Below, one piece after another: positions 16,310 to 64,000 of a DNA stretch of 64,000 nt. Made by a program: the position numbers and the translations under genes. How positions within the stretch are numbered: the first letter of the stretch is position 1; the number at the start of each line of letters is the position of its first letter. Below the pieces are notes generated by a model that had not been told where the DNA came from, ran no database searches, and worked only from the letters and a program-made list of their open reading frames with translations. This stretch comes from a virus: positions 1 to 64,000 of the IMG/VR virus record IMGVR_UViG_3300042731_011014. One strand, given 5' to 3'.

Positions 16310-16482
16310 CGTTTTTTCGTATCAAAAATAGGCTCTCCATTCTCGTACATCCACGCATATTGTGCTTTATTACATGATTCACACCTACACCAATAAACCC
16401 CTTTTTGCATTAAAATCCAACTTCTGTCTTTTATCTCAGAATTACAAAATATGCACTGGAATAAATTTGGTCTTTCACTCAA
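16306..16482 (-). CDS. Small zinc-ribbon protein
   Basis: CIFCNSEI and CRCESCNK form a zinc ribbon. I prefer the TTG at 16482, which overlaps the upstream stop and has AGGAG ten bases away; the longer frame to 16545 overlaps its neighbour by 70 nt. Confidence 0.6.
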   Translation of the reverse strand: MSERPNLFQCIFCNSEIKDRSWILMQKGVYWCRCESCNKAQYAWMYENGEPIFDTKKR

Positions 16483-32841: not shown

Positions 32842-33242
32842 GGCTCCTCTATAAGGTTAGTAACTGTATTCCAATCATAGACCTCCAATACCCCAATCAC
32901 CATAGATTCGATCTCGCTCTCATCAAAATCTCTGCATGAGCAAATATTGAGCCAAAAAAATCCACCATCATCTCTTTGTAAGTTTCTTTTAGACCAACCG
33001 TGAAACGATATGTGAGATGTTGAAAGTATCAAAGCACTAGAACCGCCTTCGTCGTAAAAAACCGCCTCCCCTTTCCTGCTAAGATCTTCTTTAACATTTA
33101 CAGAAATTGATTTCAAAACCCTCATTCCTATAAGATCACATATGCATGACAGTAACCACTTTATATCCCCTTCTGAGTTAAGAAAATCCCTCCTCTTAGT
33201 CCAACCGACTAAATCAACACTTTTGCCTATTATTCTTTTCAT
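32838..33242 (-). CDS. S-adenosylmethionine decarboxylase-like protein (SpeD-like)
   Basis: SpeD decarboxylates SAM for spermidine synthesis and self-processes to a pyruvoyl enzyme. EGGSSALILSTSHISFHGWS matches the family's ESHLSIHTWPE site, keeping the processing Ser, the His, and a later Cys (NICSC). ESH is TSH here, so cleavage would be Thr-Ser. At 134 residues it fits the small bacterial form. It overlaps the SF2 helicase stop. Confidence 0.6.
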   Translation of the reverse strand: MKRIIGKSVDLVGWTKRRDFLNSEGDIKWLLSCICDLIGMRVLKSISVNVKEDLSRKGEAVFYDEGGSSALILSTSHISFHGWSKRNLQRDDGGFFWLNICSCRDFDESEIESMVIGVLEVYDWNTVTNLIEEP

Positions 33243-36200
33243 CCCTTTGTCCTTTAAGGTAACCTTTTCTTTTGTAAAACTTTTCCCTACTTAAATACAT
33301 ATTGTTAAATTCAGGAATCATACTATCAACCATGTCAACTATTATAACAGGGGTTTTTTTACCCTTATCGTATCTAGCGGCCCTTCCGACAGCTTGCTCA
33401 ACGTCAGACATGGGAGATGCTAATACCTCTGTATCAATATCAGGTATGTCCAATGCTTGAGACGCCATTTGAAAAGTCGCAAAAATAACTTGGGCTCGCT
33501 CTGCTTTTTTTAACTCATCATCAGTTCTTTTTTTCTTTTTTCGTTTTTTATTCTCATCAACCTCATTGGTAAACCATTGGCCTGTATAATAATCAACAAC
33601 CGTACATGGACCAAGTTTAGTATCTAAAAAATAATCCTTAATTCTATCAAGGTGAAATAAAGATGATGATAGAACAATTACTTTCCTTTTAGCCTCAACT
33701 ATTCTCTCTAATTCAAGAGCTATTCTTTGATTCCTTTTCTTATTAGCATAAAGGAACTTTAGCTTAATCTCTTTTGGGAGTTTACCTGGATCAACTTTAT
33801 CCGTCTTAATTATATCAAATCCAGTCCACACCCTTTTAACAATAATATCCATCTTTTTGGTATTAGATTTGTATCCAACCCTACCAATATGATATAGGAA
33901 AACCTTTTCCGTTCCATCTTTCCTTCTTGGAGTCGCTGAATTGTGTACAAGTATTCCACTAGAAACAAATGAACAGTGACCACAAACTTCAAGATCGTAA
34001 ACATATTTTGGCCGAGCAACATCTCGAATCTCTCGCACAATTCCCTCGGCAAAATTCATGTCTCCATGAACAAATCTCCTCCTACTACCATATCGCCCAT
34101 ATGAATTACCATCGAGAGCATGTTTTGAAAAATACACAACATATTTTATTCTCCTGCCTTTTATTCTTCTACCATCAATCATTCCACCACTCACCCTCTC
34201 ACTCACAGAGCACCCAGATAATACCCCAAGACTTCTAAGTAACGATTGACATCCATATGCAAGGCTCTTAGAAGTAGTAGTAAAATGGTAACTTTTCTTA
34301 TCACCATCCCTCTCACTTAAACTACCATCTGAATCAAGTAGCCCCATTAAAAGTTCCATCCTGTCGTTTTTTTTCCATCCAACTATCCACTCCCCAGGAA
34401 TCCATTTTTTATAACAATAAATCTTATCACCCCAAACTGATCGAAATATTTCCGCAACAATCCTATTAGAGTATCCTACTTGACAACTACCTTGTCTTTT
34501 TTCTGTCGATAATTTCCAATTCACCCATCTCAAATCAGACATCTTCTCGATAAAATTAGAAACATCCCTCTCCTTAACAGAGAAACATATTTTACCACCA
34601 TCTAACCACCCATTGCCAAGCCAAAATCCAAACATATAAGCCCAGTCTCTAAGTTCTACTACGCATGATACATACGTACCACTTGCACCCTCTGTATAAA
34701 TCAACTCAGGATCACTCAAAAACTTTCTTTTTCTAATAAATTCTTTTATTGGCAGCCTGCTACCATATTTACCATTTAAATATCTCCACCTGGTTTTTGA
34801 ATCATATTCTTTAACATCTTCTCTGGTTAATCCAACAGCTACATGGACCTTGCTTAAATTAATAGCAGATTTCATAATAATAGATGGAACATCTATAGAA
34901 CCTAAAGAACCACCTCCCCACTCATTCCCATTATCTACAAAAAGACAATCACCTTCAACAATATCCGCGACTCTACACTTTTCAATACCTGCTATTTCCT
35001 TCTTTTTCCCATTTACATACTTGTAATCCAACCCAGCAACTCTAAATATCTCGTGACTTGCAGTAGCTACCAACCTGTTTCCCGACACTGTCAGCTCTTT
35101 AACATTATCGGTACAATTATGCCGGAATATTTTCTTAACCTCCTTCCATTTAAAATCTCTACCACTCCAACCTCTACTGCTAATTCCAGAATTTCTTGTA
35201 TCAATAACTCCATCCTTCTCTGAAAAAAACCTTGAAGCCATAGAATACGCATCCTGTATTTTTCCAACCCAACCACGCCCAAAAATTCCACCTCTCAATT
35301 CCACAACAGATTCTGGGCCAACACTAAGACCAATGCGATTCCTTGCCCTGAACATGGGCATTAATGGCGAAAATGTTGGAGCAGATATCCTATGCACCTC
35401 GTCGGCGATAACTAATCCTGGCCAATCATAAACCTCTTGAGGATATTTACCTTTTCTCATTGATTGCATCATGCCAATTACAACGTCACATCCGCTCGTT
35501 TGACATATATTAGATCTAATAAAGCCAACCTTAACACCTGGAACAAATTCCTCAAGCCTAGCCTTCCATTGATTCATTAAAAACTCGCGATCAACTAGAA
35601 CAAGCGTTGACATTCCAATCGTTGCTATAATTGAACACGCCACAACCGTGTTATGAGTTACTGTAAAATCACCCAATAAGAATCTGCCATCACTATCAAG
35701 TTCAAATCCAGCATACTCACCAACACCATCATCCCTAATGCTAATACCTGTCCTTGTAGCACATTTTATTTGTTTCCTTTCTCCGGGAAACTTCCTCTTT
35801 ATCCTCATTGGGATATCTTTAAAATCACCGGAAACAATCATCCTATAGCAAGTTTTGCTATTAACAACTTTCTCACTAACTGTAACCATAAAACCAAGAG
35901 ACCTAGCTAAAAAACATATACCATCCGCATAACCTTTTCTTGATTGAATTATCTCCATGCACCCGCCAGCATTATTTCCATCAGTATCTAAAATACCAGC
36001 AAAAAATTCTCTTCTATTGTATCTGGAAGATACAAGAAACTTTTTTGGTATACTGCAAGAATTCCTCCCAAAAATATCCCTCATCAACGAAAGCAACCTG
36101 TTACTACCACCACGTTCTCCACATGTTATATGATATGTTGGACAGCCGTTGTAAGAATAATCTGTTCTAACAAAAAGATCAAATTTTCTCGCAATCCTAT

Positions 36201-37026
36201 CACATTCATTATAAATTTCTACATCAGGGTTACTTATCGCAACACCATTCAGATTTTTAGTACCATCCCCAATCCAAATACCAGCAAAATAAGGATCAAT
36301 TGGCAATTTAGGATATGGCTCAGGAAAATCTATACCATTTGGAGGAGAAAATTGTTTATATCTAGATCTCTGGGACTCCGTCAAAGACCTCCATTCATCA
36401 ATAGATATATCTACAATTTCTTTGCTTTTATTATTTACAAGAGTAAGAATATGAACATCATTACACACCCATGATTCGCCTTTTATTGGAATAATTCTCC
36501 TCAATTCGCCAACGCCACGAGTAGTGGACAATACCTTCTTTGGCTTACTATCTGGTCCCATTAACATATCACCAGCTTTTACATCTTCAACACATGTAAT
36601 GTCACCATTATAATGAAGAACCTTCGTTCCAATTTTAAGGCACTTACCAAATCCTGGCTCTGCTTGTATTATCAAGCCAGTTCCAGGATGCTTTAAATAA
36701 TCTACAGCAACATCATGTGCATTTTCCTGATCATGTCGAAAATTAATCCTGGATTTTAAAAATACTTGATTACCATGACTTAGTCTATACTCAATATCTA
36801 TTCCAATTAACCCTTTTTGAAAGAAATATTCTCTAGGAATTCCAATATAGTTACCCCTTTGCTCATACATAAAAATTGGTTTCGGATCATCAGCAAGTCT
36901 ATGCATTTTTCTTGGAGTAACAGTTAATTGCTTCCTATACTCAAACAACCCGTTTATTTCCATGTCATCAGCATGGATCCATGCCATACCGTTAAGGATA
37001 GCTTTCACCCTACGCTCTCCTGACAA
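33214..37026 (-). CDS. SF2 DNA helicase (UvsW/RadD-like) with two inteins
   Basis: The precursor has 1270 residues; removing two inteins leaves 477. The mature helicase reads GLIIQAEPGFGK/TVVAC (motif I), IADEVHR (motif II), GL/SATPRRKDG (motif III) and a C-terminal half with SDVEQAVGRAARYD (motif VI). This resembles phage UvsW-type branch-migrating helicases. Intein 1 splits motif I after GK; intein 2 splits motif III before SAT, so the helicase is dead until both splice. Both carry LAGLIDADG endonucleases. It lies downstream of the MazG-like gene and before speD-like. Confidence 0.9.
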   Translation of the reverse strand: MSGERRVKAILNGMAWIHADDMEINGLFEYRKQLTVTPRKMHRLADDPKPIFMYEQRGNYIGIPREYFFQKGLIGIDIEYRLSHGNQVFLKSRINFRHDQENAHDVAVDYLKHPGTGLIIQAEPGFGKCLKIGTKVLHYNGDITCVEDVKAGDMLMGPDSKPKKVLSTTRGVGELRRIIPIKGESWVCNDVHILTLVNNKSKEIVDISIDEWRSLTESQRSRYKQFSPPNGIDFPEPYPKLPIDPYFAGIWIGDGTKNLNGVAISNPDVEIYNECDRIARKFDLFVRTDYSYNGCPTYHITCGERGGSNRLLSLMRDIFGRNSCSIPKKFLVSSRYNRREFFAGILDTDGNNAGGCMEIIQSRKGYADGICFLARSLGFMVTVSEKVVNSKTCYRMIVSGDFKDIPMRIKRKFPGERKQIKCATRTGISIRDDGVGEYAGFELDSDGRFLLGDFTVTHNTVVACSIIATIGMSTLVLVDREFLMNQWKARLEEFVPGVKVGFIRSNICQTSGCDVVIGMMQSMRKGKYPQEVYDWPGLVIADEVHRISAPTFSPLMPMFRARNRIGLSVGPESVVELRGGIFGRGWVGKIQDAYSMASRFFSEKDGVIDTRNSGISSRGWSGRDFKWKEVKKIFRHNCTDNVKELTVSGNRLVATASHEIFRVAGLDYKYVNGKKKEIAGIEKCRVADIVEGDCLFVDNGNEWGGGSLGSIDVPSIIMKSAINLSKVHVAVGLTREDVKEYDSKTRWRYLNGKYGSRLPIKEFIRKRKFLSDPELIYTEGASGTYVSCVVELRDWAYMFGFWLGNGWLDGGKICFSVKERDVSNFIEKMSDLRWVNWKLSTEKRQGSCQVGYSNRIVAEIFRSVWGDKIYCYKKWIPGEWIVGWKKNDRMELLMGLLDSDGSLSERDGDKKSYHFTTTSKSLAYGCQSLLRSLGVLSGCSVSERVSGGMIDGRRIKGRRIKYVVYFSKHALDGNSYGRYGSRRRFVHGDMNFAEGIVREIRDVARPKYVYDLEVCGHCSFVSSGILVHNSATPRRKDGTEKVFLYHIGRVGYKSNTKKMDIIVKRVWTGFDIIKTDKVDPGKLPKEIKLKFLYANKKRNQRIALELERIVEAKRKVIVLSSSLFHLDRIKDYFLDTKLGPCTVVDYYTGQWFTNEVDENKKRKKKKRTDDELKKAERAQVIFATFQMASQALDIPDIDTEVLASPMSDVEQAVGRAARYDKGKKTPVIIVDMVDSMIPEFNNMYLSREKFYKRKGYLKGQRDEKNNRQKC
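33940..35325 (-). mobile_element. Intein 2 of the SF2 helicase (462 aa, LAGLIDADG)
   Basis: Starts with Ser (SVGPESVVELRGG) after RIGL and ends SSGILVHN before extein SATPRR. LAGLIDADG motifs are MFGFWLGNGW and LLMGLLDSDG. Ser1 and Ser+1 are the nucleophiles. Its insertion in motif III is a conserved, hence protected, site. Confidence 0.9.
35650..36642 (-). mobile_element. Intein 1 of the SF2 helicase (331 aa, LAGLIDADG)
   Basis: Starts with Cys (CLKIGTKVLHYNGDITCVED) after GFGK and ends DFTVTHN before extein Thr. LAGLIDADG motifs are YFAGIWIGDG and FFAGILDTDG. Splicing residues Cys1, His-Asn and Thr+1 are all present. Confidence 0.9.
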
Positions 37027-38350: not shown

Positions 38351-38375
38351 AATTTGTTCAATTATTTGATCTTTT
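38275..38375. repeat. 54-bp tandem direct duplication
   Basis: Two copies of a 54-bp-period unit lie at 38275-38328 and 38329-38375 (second copy partial), nearly identical, in frame with the gene they start. Confidence 0.8.
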
Positions 38376-38402
38376 CTTACCTGGACATTTATCCATATGA
38401 TT

Positions 38403-38602
38403 GCCTATGCATTAGCGGGAATCGAACCCGCAAGCCCCCCACGGACTCTCTAAATTAAGGCTACAAGGCCGCATAACTGAGCAAGCTGCTCAGCTTACTG
38501 CCTTGAGCCTTAATGCTGGTTACGTAATCCAGCGCCATCTGTTTCAGTAGACCGTCTATCCGTTTAAAGCATCCCAGTCAAAACAACCGAAACTGCCTAG
38601 GC
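38403..38602 (-). ncRNA. Structured RNA with a tRNA-like T arm (possible tmRNA-like RNA)
   Basis: A 270-bp gap without ORFs. Reading the minus strand: GCCTAGGCA at the 5' end pairs 8 of 9 with TGCATAGGC at the 3' end; GCGGGTTCGATTCCCGC at 38431-38415 is a perfect T arm. Between them is a long hairpin, ATTAAGGCT/AGCCTTAAT plus CAAGGC/GCCTTG (38454-38514) capped by CTGAGCA/TGCTCAG. TTTTGACTGGGATG near the 5' side resembles the tmRNA 5' motif. It is shorter than known tmRNAs, has no evident tag frame and no encoded CCA, so identity is open. Confidence 0.5.
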
Positions 38603-39644: not shown

Positions 39645-41807
39645 TTACAATTTAATATTCTCTATTTCTTTAGTTACCTCTTTTTTACTCATACCACCGG
39701 GATCGCATTCGTCTGGTAACTCAATAACTTTAACCTGGATTTTTTTAGCTATAAGATTTCTCAACTTAACCATTGCATCCTTTCCCGCCTTATCACCATC
39801 AAACATTATTACAGCGCCTCTGTTAACCGGAATGCATCTAACTATCCTTAATATCTGTTCGTCACTAAAACCTGTCCCCATTGTCGCAACCGCATTGTAC
39901 CCATACTGCCACATAATAACAGCATCGATATGGCCCTCAACTAAAAACACATCACCCCTAGACTCCTCTATAAGATGTTCACCGAATAAAAAATTACCCT
40001 TCTTGAACCTTAAAAAATCAGATTCCCTTCTCCAATCAATAAATGGCTTAAGTTTATACTCACCTATATCCCAATTATAGTGACAATTATGGACCAATAA
40101 GCCATTATTTACAAATGTCTTTGCCTCAGTTTCAAAATCAACAAGTTCTTCCTCTGATAAAAACTCAATACCATCAACAGCAACAGGCATACCATCTCTT
40201 ATGGTATGAATTAACATAGCACTTTCAAAACGGTCCCTTACAGTGGACGCGATCATCCTCAGCATCGACCATGATACCCTACTTCTACCTGCCAATGCAT
40301 CAGGATTAATCCCAACACCAGACTCCCTGCAAAATTCTCTTAACAATTCACCCGCGAACATCCCAGTTTTTCTTTCGCTACCATAATGCCTAATTATTGC
40401 CTTTTGTTTCTCATTAATACCAAATCCAACTGAATTAGCAAATCTCACTGCCTGCTCGCCACACATTGTTAATACAAAAGAACCACATTTAGATCTCTTT
40501 TTATTAGCAAAAACCCCAACTGACTGCAATAATAACATAATACCGTCTATGGCACATTCAGAATTCAACCCTATTCTAACCTTTCCATCAGCACTTGATC
40601 CGTCAGCATCAAACACACCACGAATAAATCCAACAATTTCAGATCTAGAACTCATTGTCGGTACAAACCATGAGCTACTTTTGCTTCTACGTGGCCTACT
40701 ACCGATACAATCTAATGCACGTATTCTATCACCTGAAATCGCAAACCACTTAGTATCACCACATGGTTTTCTTTCAACAAATTTTAGACCACTCACCTTG
40801 GCGGCCTTTTTTAATGATTCCCGCCAATATTTCACATTTTTATCAAATCCAAAAACAATTGTTCTACTGCTTTCTCGATATCCATCACCACAAAAGGCAC
40901 CTACAAGCCACCACCATAAATCTGCAACATTATCACCGCTTGCCCAACCAGGTGCTAAATACATAAAATCATCACGACTTAACTCCTGTGAATGAACCCA
41001 GCTCCATTTACCTTTTTTCCAGCACCAAACCTTGTGATTGAAACCAAAAAACACTTCTTGACCATTCCTAAGGGAAACTTTTACAACCCTACTGGTTGTA
41101 TTCCATTTATTTACAATTTTAGACCATCCCCATTTACCTTCTTTCTCGTTAAACGACCACACCTTATCCCCAACCACGACCGCACCTGCTTCGATACAAC
41201 CTCTTCCTGTAATAATAATTGAATCTCTTCTAATACAATATTTTGGTATCCTATCTCCAACACTTCTACCACTTACCCCGCGCAATCTCCCCCTTTCATC
41301 TCTTGTCACAAATATCGCTCTAGCGTTCTTTTTGTCAAACCCAATATTCCAATATCTTGCTGTCTCGATACTTATACCACGATCAAGAATATACCTTGGG
41401 ATCTCCCCTAAGAATCCATCAATAGATGATTCAGGCAAAAAATCGTAATAATAATCGCTTTTATCTTTACATTCTGCCTTTTTTGCCCAAGATGAAATCA
41501 TCTGTCTAGGTAACCTTGAATACCTCATAAGCAATAATGATTTGCCGGAGAAATCCGGGGAATCATATCCTTTTAGCCCCCATTCGCTTATTGCCATTTT
41601 TTCAAGAATGCCTTCAAAACCACAAGCAAAGCATTTACAGTAACTACCTCCAGAGTTGTTAACAAAAACCGAAAACGATGGATTCCTATCATACCCTCTT
41701 TTATGGTTCTCCCCTTTTGGGCATGTTGAAATAATAGATCGCGCTCTGTTCTTTATTTTTTTGCACCCAATAGATTCAAGTAACTGTTTTATCTTATCTT
41801 CTGTCAT
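39645..41807 (-). CDS. dnaG: DnaG-type primase with one intein
   Basis: The 720-residue precursor yields a 336-residue primase after intein removal. A CHC2-type zinc domain is at residues 29-62 (CPKGENH...YCKCFACGF), and the TOPRIM core carries VFLVEGHIDAV and IMFDGDKAG with the metal-binding acids. It lacks the long helicase-binding tail of bacterial DnaG, like compact phage primases. It would lay RNA primers for lagging-strand synthesis with the DnaB helicase encoded next. The intein splits IPKY/CHYN, between zinc and TOPRIM domains. Confidence 0.9.
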   Translation of the reverse strand: MTEDKIKQLLESIGCKKIKNRARSIISTCPKGENHKRGYDRNPSFSVFVNNSGGSYCKCFACGFEGILEKMAISEWGLKGYDSPDFSGKSLLLMRYSRLPRQMISSWAKKAECKDKSDYYYDFLPESSIDGFLGEIPRYILDRGISIETARYWNIGFDKKNARAIFVTRDERGRLRGVSGRSVGDRIPKYCIRRDSIIITGRGCIEAGAVVVGDKVWSFNEKEGKWGWSKIVNKWNTTSRVVKVSLRNGQEVFFGFNHKVWCWKKGKWSWVHSQELSRDDFMYLAPGWASGDNVADLWWWLVGAFCGDGYRESSRTIVFGFDKNVKYWRESLKKAAKVSGLKFVERKPCGDTKWFAISGDRIRALDCIGSRPRRSKSSSWFVPTMSSRSEIVGFIRGVFDADGSSADGKVRIGLNSECAIDGIMLLLQSVGVFANKKRSKCGSFVLTMCGEQAVRFANSVGFGINEKQKAIIRHYGSERKTGMFAGELLREFCRESGVGINPDALAGRSRVSWSMLRMIASTVRDRFESAMLIHTIRDGMPVAVDGIEFLSEEELVDFETEAKTFVNNGLLVHNCHYNWDIGEYKLKPFIDWRRESDFLRFKKGNFLFGEHLIEESRGDVFLVEGHIDAVIMWQYGYNAVATMGTGFSDEQILRIVRCIPVNRGAVIMFDGDKAGKDAMVKLRNLIAKKIQVKVIELPDECDPGGMSKKEVTKEIENIKL
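40086..41237 (-). mobile_element. Primase intein (384 aa, LAGLIDADG)
   Basis: Begins CIRRDSIIITGRGCIEAG, ends NNGLLVHN, extein +1 Cys. LAGLIDADG motifs LVGAFCGDG and FIRGVFDADG. All splicing residues present. Confidence 0.9.
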
Positions 41808-49263: not shown

Positions 49264-49303
49264 TGTTATTTCTCTTTACTCTTATAGATTGCACGATTGG
49301 GGC

Positions 49304-49319
49304 CAACTACATGTAGTTG
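49304..49319. promoter_or_regulatory. 16-bp perfect palindrome, operator candidate
   Basis: CAACTACATGTAGTTG is perfectly self-complementary. Its right half, seen on the minus strand, supplies TAGTTG 17 bp before TATAAG, so a bound dimer would cover the -35 of the leftward promoter. Confidence 0.55.
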
Positions 49320-49768
49320 TTTACAGGTTTTTAGCCCTAAAAGCCTAATGTTTTCAATAGGTATGACATGTATCATAAGCTAATGATATGTGTGGCCGAC
49401 ATGTGTTACATTGCAAATATTGCAGAGATTAAATTTTTGAGAAAGTATCAATATGAACAGAATTGAGTATTTTCAGTACTTTACAATTGGATTTTCTCTA
49501 TGCAAAAAGTTGCAATCCGACATGTCAGATATCAACATTTTTGCGATGTAGGGATATAGGGCATATTATTGCTTCTTATTATACTCATACTCTGTTTGAA
49601 TCCAGAATCCCAAATGCTTTAGCTTTGGGAGTACGACAAGCGCTGTGATAGCGTTTTGTGAAAAAAGTGCGATGAGAACTGTATTGAGTTTTCCTGATAT
49701 CGTACATTGTCATTATTTGGCTCACATTTAACTACTTAAAATATTTCAGAAAATTTCCATTTTTACCC

Positions 49769-49801
49769 TTGATCTTTTCTACTGATCAATCACTATATAA
49801 T
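49769..49801 (+). promoter_or_regulatory. Shared promoter-like motif, copy D (rightward)
   Basis: TTGATC, 21 nt, TATAATTGTAG, with ATCACTA just before TATAAT. Identical in layout to copies A-C, and the only one facing right. It lies 36 nt before the first plus-strand gene. Confidence 0.65.
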
Positions 49802-49836
49802 TGTAGCGAGAAAAAAACAAAACAAAGGAGAGAGAA

Positions 49837-50022
49837 ATGAGAGTAGAGAAATTAAGAACAAAGATAGAAGCGCACTCAAGCGAGAACGGATGTTCTTGCG
49901 CGGAGGAATTCGCGCAAGAGTGCAAGGAACTGTCTCTCTCTGCGGGGGAAGTTCCCCAGCAAATGCTTACATATTGGCTGCGTACGATTGAATCGTACGC
50001 ATGTGATGAGGAGCAGGATTAA
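49837..50022 (+). CDS. First plus-strand gene: 61-aa protein, mRNA full of stem-loops
   Basis: AAAGGAGAGAG precedes the ATG. The peptide is acidic, with four cysteines and a helical look. What stands out is the DNA: GCACTC/GAGTGC (49872-49923) encloses AGAAC/GTTCT and TTGCGCG/CGCGCAA hairpins; GGAACT/AGTTCC follows; then a 9-10-bp stem TGCGTACGA/TCGTACGCA (49979-50001). Base composition is far more GC-rich than its surroundings, because of the stems. It may function as an RNA, a protein, or both. No family recognised. Confidence 0.7.
   Translation: MRVEKLRTKIEAHSSENGCSCAEEFAQECKELSLSAGEVPQQMLTYWLRTIESYACDEEQD
49872..49923 (+). repeat. Three-way-junction-like inverted repeats
   Basis: Outer GCACTC (49872-49877) pairs with GAGTGC (49918-49923). 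Inside are AGAAC/GTTCT with a GGAT loop and TTGCGCG/CGCGCAA with a GAGGAATT loop. Confidence 0.7.
49979..50001 (+). repeat. 9-bp perfect stem-loop in the first plus-strand gene
   Basis: TGCGTACGA and TCGTACGCA flank TTGAA; one more T-A pair is possible. Confidence 0.8.
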
Positions 50023-50075
50023 TTAAGCCCTGCTAGAGCCCTCTAGTTAACCGGAGGGCTCTATGGAAGGCTTAA
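50023..50075 (+). promoter_or_regulatory. Nested intercistronic stem-loop
   Basis: TTAAGCC (50023) pairs with GGCTTAA (50069-50075), enclosing AGAGCCCTC/GAGGGCTCT with a 10-nt loop. No U-run follows, so it is more likely an RNA-processing or stability element than an intrinsic terminator. Confidence 0.65.
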
Positions 50076-50088
50076 CAAAGGAGAAAAA

Positions 50089-50289
50089 ATGGAAGAAAGA
50101 AACGAGCACACCTATTCCTACTATAGCGGGGGGGGGTACTACCCCAAATTAGGGAAGTTCGGGACGGAGCTTATTAAAAAGAATAAAAAATTCGGATATT
50201 CCTTTGATTACAAAGGAATCTCCCATGGCCCATACGCTTCATGGGAAGAAGTCGTAAAAGCATTACGAAAATATCACAATAAACTTTAG
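50089..50289 (+). CDS. Second plus-strand gene: 66-aa protein, mRNA with perfect stems
   Basis: AAAGGAG precedes the ATG. The peptide is aromatic- and lysine-rich (YSYYSGGGYYPKLGKFG, GISHGPYASWEEVVKAL), resembling a small beta-beta-alpha phage protein. Embedded stems: GGGGT/ACCCC (50133-50145), ATTCCTTTG/CAAAGGAAT (50198-50219) and TCCCATG/CATGGGA (50221-50246). It converges on and overlaps the minus-strand gene by 4 nt. Confidence 0.75.
   Translation: MEERNEHTYSYYSGGGYYPKLGKFGTELIKKNKKFGYSFDYKGISHGPYASWEEVVKALRKYHNKL
50198..50246 (+). repeat. Two adjacent perfect stem-loops in the second plus-strand gene
   Basis: ATTCCTTTG/CAAAGGAAT with an ATTA loop is followed directly by TCCCATG/CATGGGA with a 12-nt loop. 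Confidence 0.75.
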
Positions 50290-50732
50290 GATCCTTCATT
50301 TTTTTTACCCAGTGCCGCCTTTATAGCTTTTATAGCTGCTTCCTTCATATTATCATCAATATCACCGTGTGTATGATCATAATCGAGCATCTTAACATTT
50401 AGGTCTTCAGCAAGATCTCTAGCTATCTTCCTATCAACAGCTTCGCGAATTGACTTCCATTCATCTGGATTATTTATCAATGACTGTGGTATACCGAATT
50501 CGTCATACTTTTCATCAATCTTGATACCTAGATCGTGAGCTGCCTTGCTAACGATCTCAATTTTTCCACCAACAAATTTCATAAAATTATCCAGACAATC
50601 TACAACCTTTTTCATTTCATTATCCAGATCCTTATCCACACCTTTGTTAAGTTCAAGATCATCACAGATCACGACCCTGCAAGTTGCTACACGATCTAGT
50701 ATCAATTTTACTCGATCCAAAAAATCAGACAT
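50286..50732 (-). CDS. Helical unknown protein, 148 aa
   Basis: ATG 50732 has AGGT six bases upstream; the longer frame runs into the pilin-like gene. The product is almost all helix with heptad-like hydrophobics. No family recognised. Confidence 0.65.
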   Translation of the reverse strand: MSDFLDRVKLILDRVATCRVVICDDLELNKGVDKDLDNEMKKVVDCLDNFMKFVGGKIEIVSKAAHDLGIKIDEKYDEFGIPQSLINNPDEWKSIREAVDRKIARDLAEDLNVKMLDYDHTHGDIDDNMKEAAIKAIKAALGKKNEGS

Positions 50733-50733
50733 G

Positions 50734-51102
50734 TCAGTACCTATTTGTTCTATTACTGTGCGCACCTTTACCAGTAACCGCTTTTATTCTTTGTGTCAAC
50801 TTACATCCCCTTGCTTTTACACATCCATACCGCTGACACCCACAATCAAGTGTAAGTATTTCACCTTTTTCTGTAATCAAGTCACAGGAACAATAGCCAT
50901 CCCCATCGGAATCTTGACTTGCACACGTTAAGCTTTTGATTTCACCAAGATTATCCGCGTACTCGGTAGCAGCCTTTAACGCCGCAGCATAATCGGCCCC
51001 GCAACTACCTATACCGCCAATAACCGCTGAACCGATAATCAAAACAACGGCCACACAAATAAGCAATTCACCTAGAGTTAATCCGCTTTCTCTTTTCATC
51101 AT
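50734..51102 (-). CDS. Type IV prepilin-like protein
   Basis: RESGLTLGELLICVAVVLII is a prepilin signal: basic leader, Gly at the cleavage site, Glu at mature position 5, and a hydrophobic helix. A short globular part with seven cysteines (CSCDLI, CGCQRYGCVKARGC) and a DSDGDGY motif follows, much smaller than host major pilins. It would need a host prepilin peptidase. A phage pilin-like protein might interfere with pili or secretion; this is inference. Confidence 0.65.
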   Translation of the reverse strand: MMKRESGLTLGELLICVAVVLIIGSAVIGGIGSCGADYAAALKAATEYADNLGEIKSLTCASQDSDGDGYCSCDLITEKGEILTLDCGCQRYGCVKARGCKLTQRIKAVTGKGAHSNRTNRY

Positions 51103-55676: not shown

Positions 55677-56237
55677 TTATCTCTCACCCTTAATCTCTCT
55701 CTCGATCTCATCGCGCCAATCATCCAAAAAACACGACATGTCGCCCTCTTGAATATATTCCAAGATTACATCAAATATTGTCCCAACCTCATACGCCCCT
55801 TTATCTTCATCGTATTTCACAAAACCCTCACAAAAATACGATGTATCCATTTCGCCTACACCTTGAGTCAAAATAGTAGCAACGTGCTCAGTCGAGTCGC
55901 TGAAATATTCATTGTTTTGCAGTGTGACAATAGTGCCATCGGCGAAGATGCAAGCCCTATTTCCACCATTGTGATTCACTAAAACCTCTTTCGCTAGTTC
56001 GTCCCAATCGATCCGATCATAGAGGGCTAAAACAAATTTATCTAAAACAAACTCGTAGGCAGCTTCGGCTAGAAACTGAGGCGATCCACATCTGACCAGA
56101 TTATCAATCTCATCCTCAAGGCTATCACGGTTCCATTTGCATTGTTTTTCGAACAAATCTAATGGCTTAACGTTAAAATAATTGTTCCAGTTAAATTTAT
56201 ATCCATTGGCTTTTTCGAATTTTTCTTGACATGACAT
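55677..56237 (-). CDS. Unknown acidic protein from its own promoter
   Basis: ATG 56237 with AAGGA upstream; 186 residues, acidic and aromatic (NWNNYFNVKPLDLF, CFLDDWRDEIEREI). Flanked by shared promoter copy A and an intrinsic terminator, so it is a monocistronic unit, rare in this window. A 10-bp inverted repeat lies inside at 55808-55843. Likely an early or host-directed gene (inference). Confidence 0.75.
   Translation of the reverse strand: MSCQEKFEKANGYKFNWNNYFNVKPLDLFEKQCKWNRDSLEDEIDNLVRCGSPQFLAEAAYEFVLDKFVLALYDRIDWDELAKEVLVNHNGGNRACIFADGTIVTLQNNEYFSDSTEHVATILTQGVGEMDTSYFCEGFVKYDEDKGAYEVGTIFDVILEYIQEGDMSCFLDDWRDEIEREIKGER
55808..55843. repeat. 10-bp perfect inverted repeat inside a CDS
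   Basis: CATCGTATTT and AAATACGATG flank a 16-nt loop. Confidence 0.8.
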
Positions 56238-56284
56238 TATTTTTTCCTTGATTGAAAGATTTGCCACCCCTTTTCCCCTCCCGC

Positions 56285-56323
56285 CCTACAATTAAATGGT
56301 GACAGGTGGACGGAAAAGATCAA
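56285..56323 (-). promoter_or_regulatory. Shared promoter-like motif, copy A
   Basis: Minus strand ACCC-TTGATC, 21 nt, TTTAATTGTAGG, with GTCACCA before the second box. Drives the 55677 gene. Confidence 0.6.
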
Positions 56324-56399
56324 GGGTAAAAATTAAGAAAGATAAGAAAAATTAGGTAGTTAAAGGTGGTTCATTCCTCACCAAAAACCACATTGGCCG

Positions 56400-56625
56400 T
56401 CATATCGTTCGTTTCAACTTCCCTTCTAATTCCTCCCAATCCTTTAATTGCTTAGGCCCAAAACAATCTTTACAAACATTCCTATGGGGATACATGGTTC
56501 CAGCATGCATAGCCTCGTTATATGAAAGGGCTCTTTCCCTATATTTGCCAAAAACCTCCCCTTTTTCTATTTTTTTATTGCATTTTACACAGTTTCGCTG
56601 TTTTTTTTGCATAATAAAATTTCAT
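56400..56625 (-). CDS. Small zinc-ribbon protein; start and body in different frames
   Basis: The body, from ATG 56612, encodes CVKCNKKIEKGEVFG and CKDCFG, a 70-residue zinc ribbon. That ATG has no ribosome site. The ATG with AAGGAAAAAACA spacing is at 56625, but its frame stops after 15 codons. An A8 run at 56608-56601 separates them; removing one A would fuse MKFYYAKK to the body. Transcriptional slippage on A8 or a simple indel would explain this. Promoter copy B lies upstream. Confidence 0.6.
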
Positions 56626-56675
56626 TGTTTTTTCCTTGAAAAAGATATTTTGGCCCCCCTCTCAACCCTTCCCCT

Positions 56676-56716
56676 CCCTACAATTAAATCGTGACAGCTC
56701 GAACCCAAAAAATCAA
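56676..56716 (-). promoter_or_regulatory. Shared promoter-like motif, copy B
   Basis: Minus strand ACCC-TTGATT, 22 nt, TTTAATTGTAGG, with GTCACGA before the second box. Drives the small zinc-ribbon gene. Confidence 0.6.
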
Positions 56717-56759
56717 GGGTAGAAAATTAAATATTTCAGTAGATACGTAGGATAAAGGT

Positions 56760-60139: not shown

Positions 60140-63100
60140 CTAGGAGCATCCACTAGTTCCACCGCAATTATCGCACTTATAGCACGATCCAGATCTGCTC
60201 ATCAGTGCACCGCACTCTCTGCATGTTGGCGCATCAATATCAATAATATAAGCATCACTGGCTATATTTTTCTCATTATCATCATCTAGCATTAAATAGT
60301 GTTTTCCGCCTGGAAAATTACGATCAAGCCATCTAAAAATATAATCCATTATGGACTTAGCCATCCTGATTTCAGGATTATCGGTAATACCTGATGGTTC
60401 AAATATAGTAAATGAGAATTTATCAACCCATACTTTTAAGGGAACTCCATGTTGTAATCCTATTGAAATCGCCGTCGCGAAGCTATCCATTAGTCCTCTA
60501 ATTGTACTACCTTCTTTGGCAACATTAATAAAAATCTCACCAATAAAACCAGATTCATACATACCAGCAGTAATATACCCCTTGTGACCCCCAATATTAA
60601 ACCTGTGAGTAACACTGGATCTGGTATTTGGCATTTTAGCTCTGTTTACTGTTGGCGGCTTAATGATATGCTTATTGGACTCCTTTTTTTCATCCATTGA
60701 CGTGTTTAACGGTTGAGTTCTTTTGCACCCATCACGATAAACTGTAATGGATTTCAGTCCAAGACGCCAAGCTTGAATATAAGCATTTTTTATATCTTCA
60801 ACAGTAGAATCACTAGGCATATTAACAGTTTTACTAATAGCCCCCGAGAGAAATGGTTGAACAGCAGCCATCATTTTAATATGACCCATATAATCTATCA
60901 TACGACCATTCGTTGACGACCTAAGCGAACAATCAAAAACAGCAAGATGATCTTCTTTAATATAAGGAGATCCGTCAATTGTGCCTTTCTTTTCTATATA
61001 ATCTACTATTTCCTCTATCTGTACACTATTATATTTGAGACTTTCTAAGGACCCCACAACCGACTGATTAACTATCTTTACAGTTCCTCCGCCAACCATT
61101 TTTTTATACTTTACAAGCGCAAGTTCAGGCTCAATACCGGTTGTGTCACAATCCATCATAAAACCAATAGTCCCGGTCGGCGCTAATAATGTTGTCTGCG
61201 CGTTTCTACACCCATAGCCATCTTGTAACCAAGTCTTGGCCTGAGCCCATCTTTCAAAAATCCTTTTATAAAAATCATTACTAATATAATATTCACTAAT
61301 CTTAGTGCTTTCATGGGCATGTCTACCGATTATATTTTCATCCATATGTTTACAATCAAAACCCTCAAATGAACCCCTCTCCTTTGCCATCTCAATACTG
61401 GTACAATATGCCTCTGCTGTCATTAAAGACGTTACAGCAGCGGCAAAACCTCTCCCCTTTTTACTATCATAGGGTATACCCTTACTCATTAATAACGCAC
61501 CCAAATTAGCATAACCAAGGCCAAGCGTCCTGTACTTATGGCTATTCTCTTTAATTTTCTTAGTTGGATAGCCCGACTTATCTACAAGTATATCCTGCGC
61601 AATAATCATGATTCGCACAACATGCGAAAATAAATCAAAATTAAATTCTCCATTTTCGTTGAATTTTTTTAGATTAATACTGGCAAGATTGCACGCACTA
61701 TTATCCAGAAACATATACTCACCACAATTATGCACACACAGTCCATTTGCCAAACCAATGTTAGTAATCGGGCAACTAAAATCATAAACATCATCTTTTC
61801 CACAACTCTCAACTGATATAATCTTTAAGAAGTTTCTCCTCGATCCAGAATAACTATCTACAACACTATTGGCATTACATATCAATCTAAGTTTTTCTTG
61901 TTGACATCTCTGCGGAAAACCAATAAATTTCGCAAACTTTATTCTATCGATCATATCGGTAATTTCAAGATGATATGATTCTTTACTAACATATTCACCA
62001 TTTGGCCATAAAATATTAACTTCCTTATTATGACACCTAACCGAACTTGATATATCCATAGATTGTAATAGCAATTGAACATTATTAAGCATTTCCTTGC
62101 ATGTAGATACAAGCCTAATAGCCTCATTTGAATCGCAACATACATTCCCATTGGCACCAAAAAGGCCTCTTAAAAACGAACATTGTGCATTATGCGTAAG
62201 ACCAAAAAGAAAATTTGGTAAATCCCTGTCTGGTAGTGCAGACATATCCATACCAATTTCTTCTAACCAGTGAAAAAAATAACTACTAGAAAATACATAA
62301 CACCTTTTATTTAGATTATAAGACGGATCCGTTTTATTAATATCAGAAAAAATAGGCAATACTGTATTCTCGATAAATTCAGTGTCCTTTCCTTTGGTAA
62401 AATAAAGAGATACGACACGGCTACTCTTATTGTATCCACCATCCCCTTGGAGAAAACCCAAAGACTCCATTAATATTTTTGAAGCATAAGAATAGTACTT
62501 TCCAGTCTTTCCAGTTATACATTTTGGAATTTTATTCGCCAGATCACTCCCAGCATTACCCTGTAATACGCATGGAATAATAAGTCCCCTTGACTCAACC
62601 GCTGGAACAAACCCTATTTCAGTTAGTATCCTATGATCACCGGTTAACCTTATTTCATGACCTCTATTGGTTTTTATCTTAACAATATCTTTTACCCCCG
62701 TCTTCCAAACTTCACCTTTTACATATCCAAATCCATCAAATATTCCAACGGATTTTCCATCAAGATCTTCTACTTTTTTCCACCCAGAAGATGTTAATAA
62801 TCTGGTACCCCTACTAATACATGGATTACTAGAGTTAATTCTACCCTCTGATGGCACTGTATTCCAACTATTTATGGTAGTATCAAATTGGATCCCAGGA
62901 TCACCGCAAACATGTGCAGCCTCAGCAATAGCCGTAAAAACATCTCTAGCCTTAACCCTATCAATAGCTTTACCGTCAGTTACAGCTATCAAATCATAGA
63001 AGTCATCGTTTTCATATGCTCCCATAAACTCATCAGTTACCCTAACACTATTATTGGCATTCTGATAACATACCGTATTGTAAGCATCGCCATTTATAGA

Positions 63101-64000
63101 TCCATCATAACCAGCATCTATTAGAGCCCATGCCTTTTTTTCCTCTTTAACTTTACAATTAATAAAGTCCATTATATCTGGGTGATTTACGTTTAATATT
63201 GCGATCTTAGCAGCCCTGCGCGTATTAAAAACAGCAATACCTGATCCGGATTTTCTACCATCACTCCATATTACAAAATTATGACCACTATTTTCTGTTT
63301 TATCATCATTTGTCTCACAAAAAACCTCAACATCGTATGAATCGTGAATACCGATGCTTTCCACCCTCAACACTCTGTGATTATCCTCCTTAACCTCTTT
63401 TAGAAAACTTTCATACCCACCAAAATTGTTTTCTATTGACTCTAGTATTTTTTTCGCAGACGAGAAATTACCAATAATTTTTTTTCTATTTTCACAATAA
63501 AGATCAAATGTATCAATACATCCACCATTATTGATAATCCTGTAAGCTAAATTCTTCATCCTTTTTCTAACAGAAAGCTTTTGCAATTCAGATGGATTTC
63601 TTTTTTTCATACCATCCCTTTGCTTTTTTCTATACTCCTCAACCTTCTCAGAATTCTTCCAAAAAACAGAATCAGCATGCATTCCATTTAGTTTTTCAGA
63701 TCTTGAAAATTTTCTTTTCGAAAAAACATGACTCCCTTTTTCAAATAACTCTTTTCCATGAATCGAAGCATGTTCTGATTGAGGCATAATTTTTAAATTA
63801 GAAATATCGTTGTTCATCCTGTCCCCATCAATATGATGAACAATATCGCCATTTTTACACTGTAAAATATCCTCTGCGACTAACCTATGGAGGTGATTTT
63901 TCCCTTTGAGACCATCTCTTAGATTAACTCTTAAATATCCACTATTTTCTGATATCACACAAGAAAACAAGGACATGCCTTCTCTAAGGTTTCCAGCATT
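60140..64000 (-). CDS. nrdJ: Class II (B12-dependent) ribonucleotide reductase with two inteins, cut by the right edge
   Basis: Makes dNTPs from ribonucleotides using adenosylcobalamin, without oxygen need. The visible extein shows TRRAAKIAILNVNHPDIMDF, INSSNP/CGEYMFLDNSAC, LAPTGTIGFMMDCDTTG and a C-terminal zinc-ribbon tail (CRECGALM...CYKCDNCGG) typical of NrdJ. About 662 extein residues are in the window; the N-terminus lies beyond it. The frame stays open to base 64000, so the ATG at 63976 is internal to the intein. Needs host or medium cobalamin. Confidence 0.9.
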   Translation of the reverse strand, partial: NAGNLREGMSLFSCVISENSGYLRVNLRDGLKGKNHLHRLVAEDILQCKNGDIVHHIDGDRMNNDISNLKIMPQSEHASIHGKELFEKGSHVFSKRKFSRSEKLNGMHADSVFWKNSEKVEEYRKKQRDGMKKRNPSELQKLSVRKRMKNLAYRIINNGGCIDTFDLYCENRKKIIGNFSSAKKILESIENNFGGYESFLKEVKEDNHRVLRVESIGIHDSYDVEVFCETNDDKTENSGHNFVIWSDGRKSGSGIAVFNTRRAAKIAILNVNHPDIMDFINCKVKEEKKAWALIDAGYDGSINGDAYNTVCYQNANNSVRVTDEFMGAYENDDFYDLIAVTDGKAIDRVKARDVFTAIAEAAHVCGDPGIQFDTTINSWNTVPSEGRINSSNPCISRGTRLLTSSGWKKVEDLDGKSVGIFDGFGYVKGEVWKTGVKDIVKIKTNRGHEIRLTGDHRILTEIGFVPAVESRGLIIPCVLQGNAGSDLANKIPKCITGKTGKYYSYASKILMESLGFLQGDGGYNKSSRVVSLYFTKGKDTEFIENTVLPIFSDINKTDPSYNLNKRCYVFSSSYFFHWLEEIGMDMSALPDRDLPNFLFGLTHNAQCSFLRGLFGANGNVCCDSNEAIRLVSTCKEMLNNVQLLLQSMDISSSVRCHNKEVNILWPNGEYVSKESYHLEITDMIDRIKFAKFIGFPQRCQQEKLRLICNANSVVDSYSGSRRNFLKIISVESCGKDDVYDFSCPITNIGLANGLCVHNCGEYMFLDNSACNLASINLKKFNENGEFNFDLFSHVVRIMIIAQDILVDKSGYPTKKIKENSHKYRTLGLGYANLGALLMSKGIPYDSKKGRGFAAAVTSLMTAEAYCTSIEMAKERGSFEGFDCKHMDENIIGRHAHESTKISEYYISNDFYKRIFERWAQAKTWLQDGYGCRNAQTTLLAPTGTIGFMMDCDTTGIEPELALVKYKKMVGGGTVKIVNQSVVGSLESLKYNSVQIEEIVDYIEKKGTIDGSPYIKEDHLAVFDCSLRSSTNGRMIDYMGHIKMMAAVQPFLSGAISKTVNMPSDSTVEDIKNAYIQAWRLGLKSITVYRDGCKRTQPLNTSMDEKKESNKHIIKPPTVNRAKMPNTRSSVTHRFNIGGHKGYITAGMYESGFIGEIFINVAKEGSTIRGLMDSFATAISIGLQHGVPLKVWVDKFSFTIFEPSGITDNPEIRMAKSIMDYIFRWLDRNFPGGKHYLMLDDDNEKNIASDAYIIDIDAPTCRECGALMSRSGSCYKCDNCGGTSGCS
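61727..62821 (-). mobile_element. NrdJ intein 2 (365 aa, LAGLIDADG)
   Basis: Begins CISRGTRLLTSSGWKKVEDL after SSNP, ends NGLCVHN before extein Cys. LAGLIDADG motifs ESLGFLQGDG and FLRGLFGANG; the second has Asn for the last acidic residue, so cleavage may be weak. Splicing residues intact. Confidence 0.9.
63224..64000 (-). mobile_element. NrdJ intein 1, partial, with HNH-type homing endonuclease
   Basis: 259 codons of intein visible. GYLRVNL...HLHRLVAEDIL and VHHIDGDRMNNDISNLKIMP form an HNH module, unlike the LAGLIDADG of the other five. Blocks F and G are YDVEVFCETN and SGIAVFN, then extein Thr; the penultimate residue is Phe instead of His. Confidence 0.8.

What the first reader, a model, noticed from the sequence alone, without database searches (positions are those of the whole stretch)
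49769..50289. Plus-strand island whose two tiny genes are written as successive perfect stem-loops
The only rightward genes in 64 kb follow a strong motif promoter. Their 480 nt hold at least seven strong hairpins: GCACTC/GAGTGC enclosing two more, a 9-10-bp stem at 49979, a nested 7+9-bp stem between the genes, then 9-bp and 7-bp stems in the second gene. The stems make this stretch much more GC-rich than its surroundings. The transcript may work as a structured RNA (decoy, protein-binding scaffold or stability element) as well as encoding peptides. I know of no described family with this layout.
Basis: partly seen in the sequence, partly recalled or inferred. Interest (0 to 1): 0.78.

Follow-up and report, generated by a model that had tools for sequence, protein, structure and literature searches.

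The report
Hairpin-rich two-gene phage operon
In a little-known 178-kb bacterial virus, the one small operon that points the opposite way to almost every other gene carries the densest cluster of DNA/RNA hairpins in the whole record, inside two tiny orphan genes; the hairpins are real and not a by-product of the proteins, but whether they control the mRNA, act as DNA, or are a mutational scar cannot be told without relatives or an experiment.

Summary
Two small + strand ORFs (49837-50022, 61 aa; 50089-50289, 66 aa) lie in a 177,890-bp myovirus record that is otherwise almost wholly coded on the - strand. Their ~480 nt hold 5 strong perfect stems; 3000 dinucleotide shuffles never gave more than 2, and codon shuffles that keep the proteins reached the 4 inside the ORFs in none of 3000. 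The best-scoring 160-nt folding window of the record lies here. The promoter motif is real: three further copies, one in a 73%-identical 85-nt duplicate upstream of a minus-strand gene. So this is a native phage operon.

The interpretation (a working structured RNA) is only partly supported. Folding is equally strong on both strands and G-U pairs show no strand bias, so RNA-level action is not singled out. Both ORFs look real. No homologue of either protein was found, so covariation and dN/dS cannot be tested. Most likely: a small early-type operon whose mRNA is folded and controlled in cis (SD1 pairs with codons ~32-35 of gene 1; a -30 kcal/mol hairpin between the genes). Main rival: template-switch palindromes without function. 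Interesting, unresolved, not categorically new.

The parts
49264..49836 (.). Divergent intergenic region. Carries a cluster of ACATGT (49309, 49366, 49399, 49520), a 44-nt imperfect palindrome (49502-49544), and on its left a leader (49269-49318) 92% identical over 50 nt to the leader of a pentapeptide-repeat gene at G000:177120-177168
   Evidence: read directly
49760..49810 (+). Promoter-like motif TTTTTACCCTTGATCTTTT-N11-TCACTATATAATTGTAG; further copies at 56332(-), 56724(-), and a weaker one at 16318(-). 49723-49806 is 73% identical to 56368-56286
49826..49839 (+). Shine-Dalgarno and start region of gene 1 (AAGGAGAGAGAAATG); predicted to pair with TCTCTCTC at about 49933-49940 (mean unpaired probability 0.32)
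49837..50022 (+). Gene 1: 61-aa acidic protein (pI 4.5, net -7), predicted three-helix fold (single-sequence AF2, pLDDT 76), no detectable homologue
49872..49923 (+). Stem GCACTC/GAGTGC enclosing two small hairpins or, alternatively, a 9-bp stem TCTTGCGCG/CGCGCAAGA (49894-49919)
49941..49961 (+). Hairpin GCGGGGGAA/TTCCCCAGC
49979..50001 (+). Perfect 10-11-bp palindrome TGCGTACGATTGAATCGTACGCA
50023..50075 (+). Intercistronic nested hairpin (TTAAGCC ... TAGAGCCCTC-loop-GAGGGCTCTA ... GGCTTAA), about -30 kcal/mol, no T run after it; ends just before the SD of gene 2
50074..50091 (+). Shine-Dalgarno and start region of gene 2 (AACAAAGGAGAAAAAATG), same module as at G000:177117-177088
50089..50289 (+). 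Gene 2: 66-aa basic, aromatic-rich protein (pI 9.4, net +5); low-confidence model (pLDDT 57); no detectable homologue
50194..50223 (.). 13-bp near-perfect stem (GGATATTCCTTTG/CAAAGGAATCTCC) inside gene 2; on the minus strand it is followed by GAATTTTTT, so it may terminate antisense read-through
50221..50246 (+). 7-bp stem TCCCATG/CATGGGA inside gene 2

Best explanation
A native two-gene operon of the phage, switched on from a phage-specific promoter shared with a few small minus-strand genes (shown as sequence; activity inferred). Its mRNA encodes two orphan small proteins and folds into a chain of stable hairpins. The most likely role of the fold is control in cis of this mRNA (inferred): the gene-1 Shine-Dalgarno is held by pairing with codons about 32-35 of the same gene, with the stems between them; the -30 kcal/mol hairpin between the genes separates the two cistrons and shields the gene-2 part from decay; and the stems inside the coding sequence slow nucleases or tune translation. 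The stem in gene 2 may also end minus-strand transcripts that would otherwise run through the operon as antisense.
For: Stems exceed dinucleotide shuffles and codon shuffles that hold the protein fixed. Third-position GC is 50% and 48% against 31% in the record, as expected if wobble positions serve pairing. Two tandem SD-led ORFs of this size arise in 3 of 3000 shuffles. The promoter motif recurs and its 85-nt context is duplicated upstream of a 196-aa gene. SD1 is mostly paired. T4 is known to regulate translation by intramolecular structure at start regions (PMC3014915).
Against: No relatives, so no covariation. Both strands fold equally and G-U use is symmetrical, while an RNA-level constraint often leaves a bias to the transcribed strand. 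SD1 pairing and the gene-2 start/3' tail pairing involve low-complexity purine and pyrimidine runs and may be fortuitous. No transcript data.
Confidence: 0.4

Rival explanations
1. Mutational palindromes: replication template switching between near-inverted repeats turned imperfect repeats into perfect ones in two weakly constrained, fast-evolving orphan genes; the hairpins have no function of their own.
For: Stems are perfect or nearly so and strand-symmetric. The rest of the record has a milder excess of strong stems (51 outside the island, against 33 expected from shuffles of the whole record), spread over genes and gaps in proportion to their length (41 in genes, 10 outside; gene coverage 86%), as a general mutational process would give. 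Template switching makes perfect stems in one event (PMC8794818). Orphan genes tolerate amino acid change.
Against: It does not explain why five strong stems fall in about 350 nt (P = 0.0008), nor why one lies exactly between the cistrons, nor the high third-position GC.
Confidence: 0.3
2. DNA-level role: the palindromes work as DNA (binding sites for dimeric proteins, or hairpins extruded on single-stranded DNA during replication or recombination) next to a regulatory or origin-like region.
For: Symmetry of both strands. The neighbouring 49264-49836 region has an ACATGT cluster and a 44-nt imperfect palindrome. A replication-initiation-like gene lies 3.6 kb away.
Against: The stems do not share a sequence, so no single protein would read them as sequence. 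They lie inside two genuine-looking ORFs rather than in the adjacent 573-nt gap.
Confidence: 0.14
3. A structured non-coding RNA; the ORFs are by-products.
For: Strongest folding window of the record; codon scores of the two ORFs are weaker than those of typical genes, and for gene 2 frame +1 scores slightly higher.
Against: Perfect SD before both ATGs, one of them a module reused before another gene; two such ORFs in tandem in only 3 of 3000 shuffles; gene 2 ends in a 4-nt convergent overlap with the next gene; no Rfam match.
Confidence: 0.08
4. Recent capture from a GC-richer source, with hairpins reflecting the donor's composition.
For: High third-position GC; no homologue in this phage's distant kin.
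Against: The promoter and ribosome-binding modules are the phage's own, and shuffles that keep the local composition still lack the stems. No donor was found.
Confidence: 0.08

Closest known systems
Coding palindromes in Nematomorpha mitochondrial genes (PMC6649704)
   Same: Perfect inverted repeats embedded in protein-coding genes, with protein and pairing kept together; template switching discussed as the origin
   Different: Theirs reach 284 bp, sit in conserved respiratory genes and recur across species; here arms are 6-11 bp, in orphan genes, in one phage, and cluster in one operon
Phage T4 mRNAs with intramolecular structure at translation start regions (review PMC3014915)
   Same: Phage mRNA whose own fold can hide the ribosome-binding site
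   Different: [quoted passage not shown] here stems run through the coding parts and between the cistrons
Template-switch-made RNA hairpins (PMC8794818)
   Same: Perfect stems that may arise in one mutation event
   Different: There shown by reconstructed ancestors; here no relatives exist to show the event
Giant structured RNAs of phages and bacteria (GOLLD, ROOL, OLE; PMC12286853)
   Same: Several hundred nt of dense structure
   Different: No Rfam match, protein-coding here, no conserved homologues

Membership tests
Coding palindromes (as in Nematomorpha) | Perfect inverted repeats inside protein-coding genes | tested here: met
   Stems at 49894-49919, 49979-50001, 50198-50219, 50221-50246 lie inside the two ORFs
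Coding palindromes (as in Nematomorpha) | Both arms encode conserved amino acids | not testable with these tools
   No homologue found
Coding palindromes (as in Nematomorpha) | Arms of considerable length (up to 284 bp) | tested here: not met
   Longest perfect arm 11 nt
Known structured RNA families (Rfam 15, incl. GOLLD, ROOL, OLE) | Match to a covariance model | tested here: not met
   No match at gathering threshold in the window or at E <= 1 in 49264-50400
Known structured RNA families (Rfam 15, incl. GOLLD, ROOL, OLE) | Covariation across homologues | not testable with these tools
   No homologues
Repetitive palindromic elements (REP, Rickettsia palindromic elements) | Many similar copies of one palindrome in the genome | tested here: not met
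   Stems differ from each other and have no other copy in the 178 kb
Type I toxin-antitoxin (structured toxin mRNA) | Small hydrophobic toxin | tested here: not met
   GRAVY -0.69 and -1.07
Type I toxin-antitoxin (structured toxin mRNA) | Ribosome-binding site hidden by mRNA fold | tested here: inconclusive
   SD1 mean unpaired 0.32, SD2 0.57 by prediction only
Known anti-defence, defence or phage protein families | Profile match in Pfam, PHROGs, NCBIfam or PADLOC | tested here: not met
   No significant match, best phrog_12920 E 0.31

The most novel reading that the evidence does not exclude
A bifunctional phage transcript: an early mRNA that encodes two small proteins and at the same time is a structured RNA acting in trans (for example a decoy for a host RNA-binding protein or nuclease), with synonymous sites under selection for the fold.
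Probability: 0.1. Interest if true: 0.8.

Novelty: new variant of a known kind. Interest (0 to 1): 0.42.

Why it matters
If the stems are selected, this is a compact case where synonymous sites of two tiny phage genes are given over to RNA structure, and it would let one test how a phage mRNA can serve as message and as structured RNA at once. If they are mutational, it is a clear natural example of clustered template-switch palindromes in fast-evolving orphan genes. Either way it warns that dense hairpins in an orphan operon do not by themselves show a functional RNA.

Tried and rejected
Homologue searches with both proteins: IMG/VR, phages, plasmids, 84,980 genomes, 25 distant kin (gene 2 only), own record: nothing but self. 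These searches need short exact peptides or tblastn similarity, so very diverged relatives could be missed. Neighbouring genes as bait, DnaB-like helicase, terminase: no close relatives; tail sheath gave 25 distant records at 34-49% identity. Three large and two partial kin records were fetched; none has the operon at the corresponding place where that could be read, and their own stem hot spots are unrelated genes. Promoter motif pattern in IMG/VR: no other record. Rfam: nothing. Terminator reading of the intercistronic hairpin rejected: no T run. Type I toxin reading rejected: proteins hydrophilic. Structure of gene 1: three helices, no significant fold match; gene 2 model too poor to search.

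Full report
What was checked. The window is the first 64 kb of a 177,890-bp virus record. Its tail sheath, baseplate wedge and prohead protease profiles mark it as a contractile-tailed phage. Nearly all genes lie on the minus strand. The two plus-strand ORFs at 49837-50022 and 50089-50289 each follow a perfect Shine-Dalgarno. In 3000 dinucleotide shuffles of the 482 nt, two SD-led ORFs of at least 55 aa appear 3 times, so at least one and probably both are real genes. The second ends in a 4-nt convergent overlap with the next minus-strand gene.

The stems. The region folds at z = -5.6 against dinucleotide shuffles. Counting perfect stems of 7 bp or more with loops of 3-12 nt and a minimum strength, the record has 56, and 5 of them lie in 49894-50246; shuffles of the operon gave 0, 1 or 2 (2756, 234 and 10 of 3000). 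With the proteins and their codon sets fixed, 4 stems inside the ORFs were never reached in 3000 codon shuffles (one gave 3), and the folding energies are z = -3.5 and -2.5 against codon shuffles, where 40 pieces of other genes average -0.4 with s.d. 1.1 (the lowest of those 40 is -3.1, so gene 2 alone is not exceptional). The two best of 8852 folding windows in the record are the two strands of 49921-50080.

What the stems do not show. The minus strand of the same stretch folds as well as the plus strand, and the numbers of G-U pairs are the same. A structured RNA under selection often keeps G-U pairs on its own strand that become A-C mismatches on the other; that sign is absent. The record as a whole also has a milder excess of strong stems over shuffles (56 against 33 +/- 5), spread over genes and gaps by length, which suggests a background process that makes palindromes. 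The island is nevertheless far above that background.

Promoter. A motif TTGAtcTTTT-N10-12-TCACcATtTAATTGtAG lies at 49760(+), 56332(-), 56724(-) and, weaker, 16318(-), each upstream of a gene, and the 85 nt around the first and second are 73% identical. It is not a canonical sigma-70 promoter (21-nt spacing). From memory only, CCCTTGAT...CCATTTA recalls heat-shock-type promoters, again with a longer spacer; this was not tested. The gene-2 ribosome-binding module and the leader of the divergent minus-strand gene recur before a pentapeptide-repeat gene at 177 kb. These shared modules argue that the operon is the phage's own.

Anatomy of a possible control. SD1 (GGAGAGAG) pairs with CUCUCUCU at about 49933-49940 and is mostly paired in the ensemble; SD2 is about half free. 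The intercistronic hairpin is about -30 kcal/mol with no T run. On the minus strand the stem at 50194-50223 is followed by GAATTTTTT, a possible terminator for transcripts coming from the thymidylate synthase side. All of this is prediction.

Relatives. None for either protein. Tail-sheath kin at 34-49% identity have GC of 46-63% among the five examined, gave no match to gene 2, and show no such operon where the corresponding place could be read.

Judgement. The reading as a structured functional RNA is plausible but not singled out. I rank cis-acting mRNA structure first (0.40), template-switch palindromes second (0.30), then DNA-level function (0.14), with a non-coding RNA and foreign DNA as minor options. 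The nearest described phenomenon is coding palindromes in Nematomorpha mitochondria (PMC6649704), from which this differs in arm length, gene type and lack of relatives.

Noticed in passing
window 33214-37026, 39645-41807, 60140-63976; G000:148255-153975: Intein-rich phage: helicase (two intein/homing-endonuclease blocks), primase and ribonucleotide reductase carry inteins, and the 1906-aa ORF next to the terminase, probably the portal, reads as having about four Hint-like inserts.
   Followed up: partly
window 49309, 49366, 49399, 49520: ACATGT cluster: 4 of the record's 42 copies within about 220 bp of the divergent region; GACATGTC occurs only three times in 178 kb (49519, 50728, 55735). 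Possible operator or iteron.
   Followed up: partly
window 49502-49544 and G000:83871-83889: 44-nt imperfect palindrome; 20 nt of it recurs at 95% in another large intergenic gap.
   Followed up: no
G000:176394-177101: Pentapeptide-repeat protein gene whose leader is 92% identical over 50 nt to the leader of the minus-strand gene next to the operon.
   Followed up: partly
window 50734-51102 (-): Pilin-like protein with an N-terminal methylation motif below the Pfam cut-off and many cysteines, encoded by a phage.
   Followed up: no
window 56235-56336 and 56623-56730 (-): Tandem duplicated promoter/leader unit (78% over 110 nt) before a 70-aa CxxC protein and a 196-aa protein.
   Followed up: no
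window 38361-38600; G000:83361, 124401-124640, 142801, 156401-156640: Other stretches with unusually strong predicted folding, the first in or next to an 874-nt intergenic gap.
   Followed up: no
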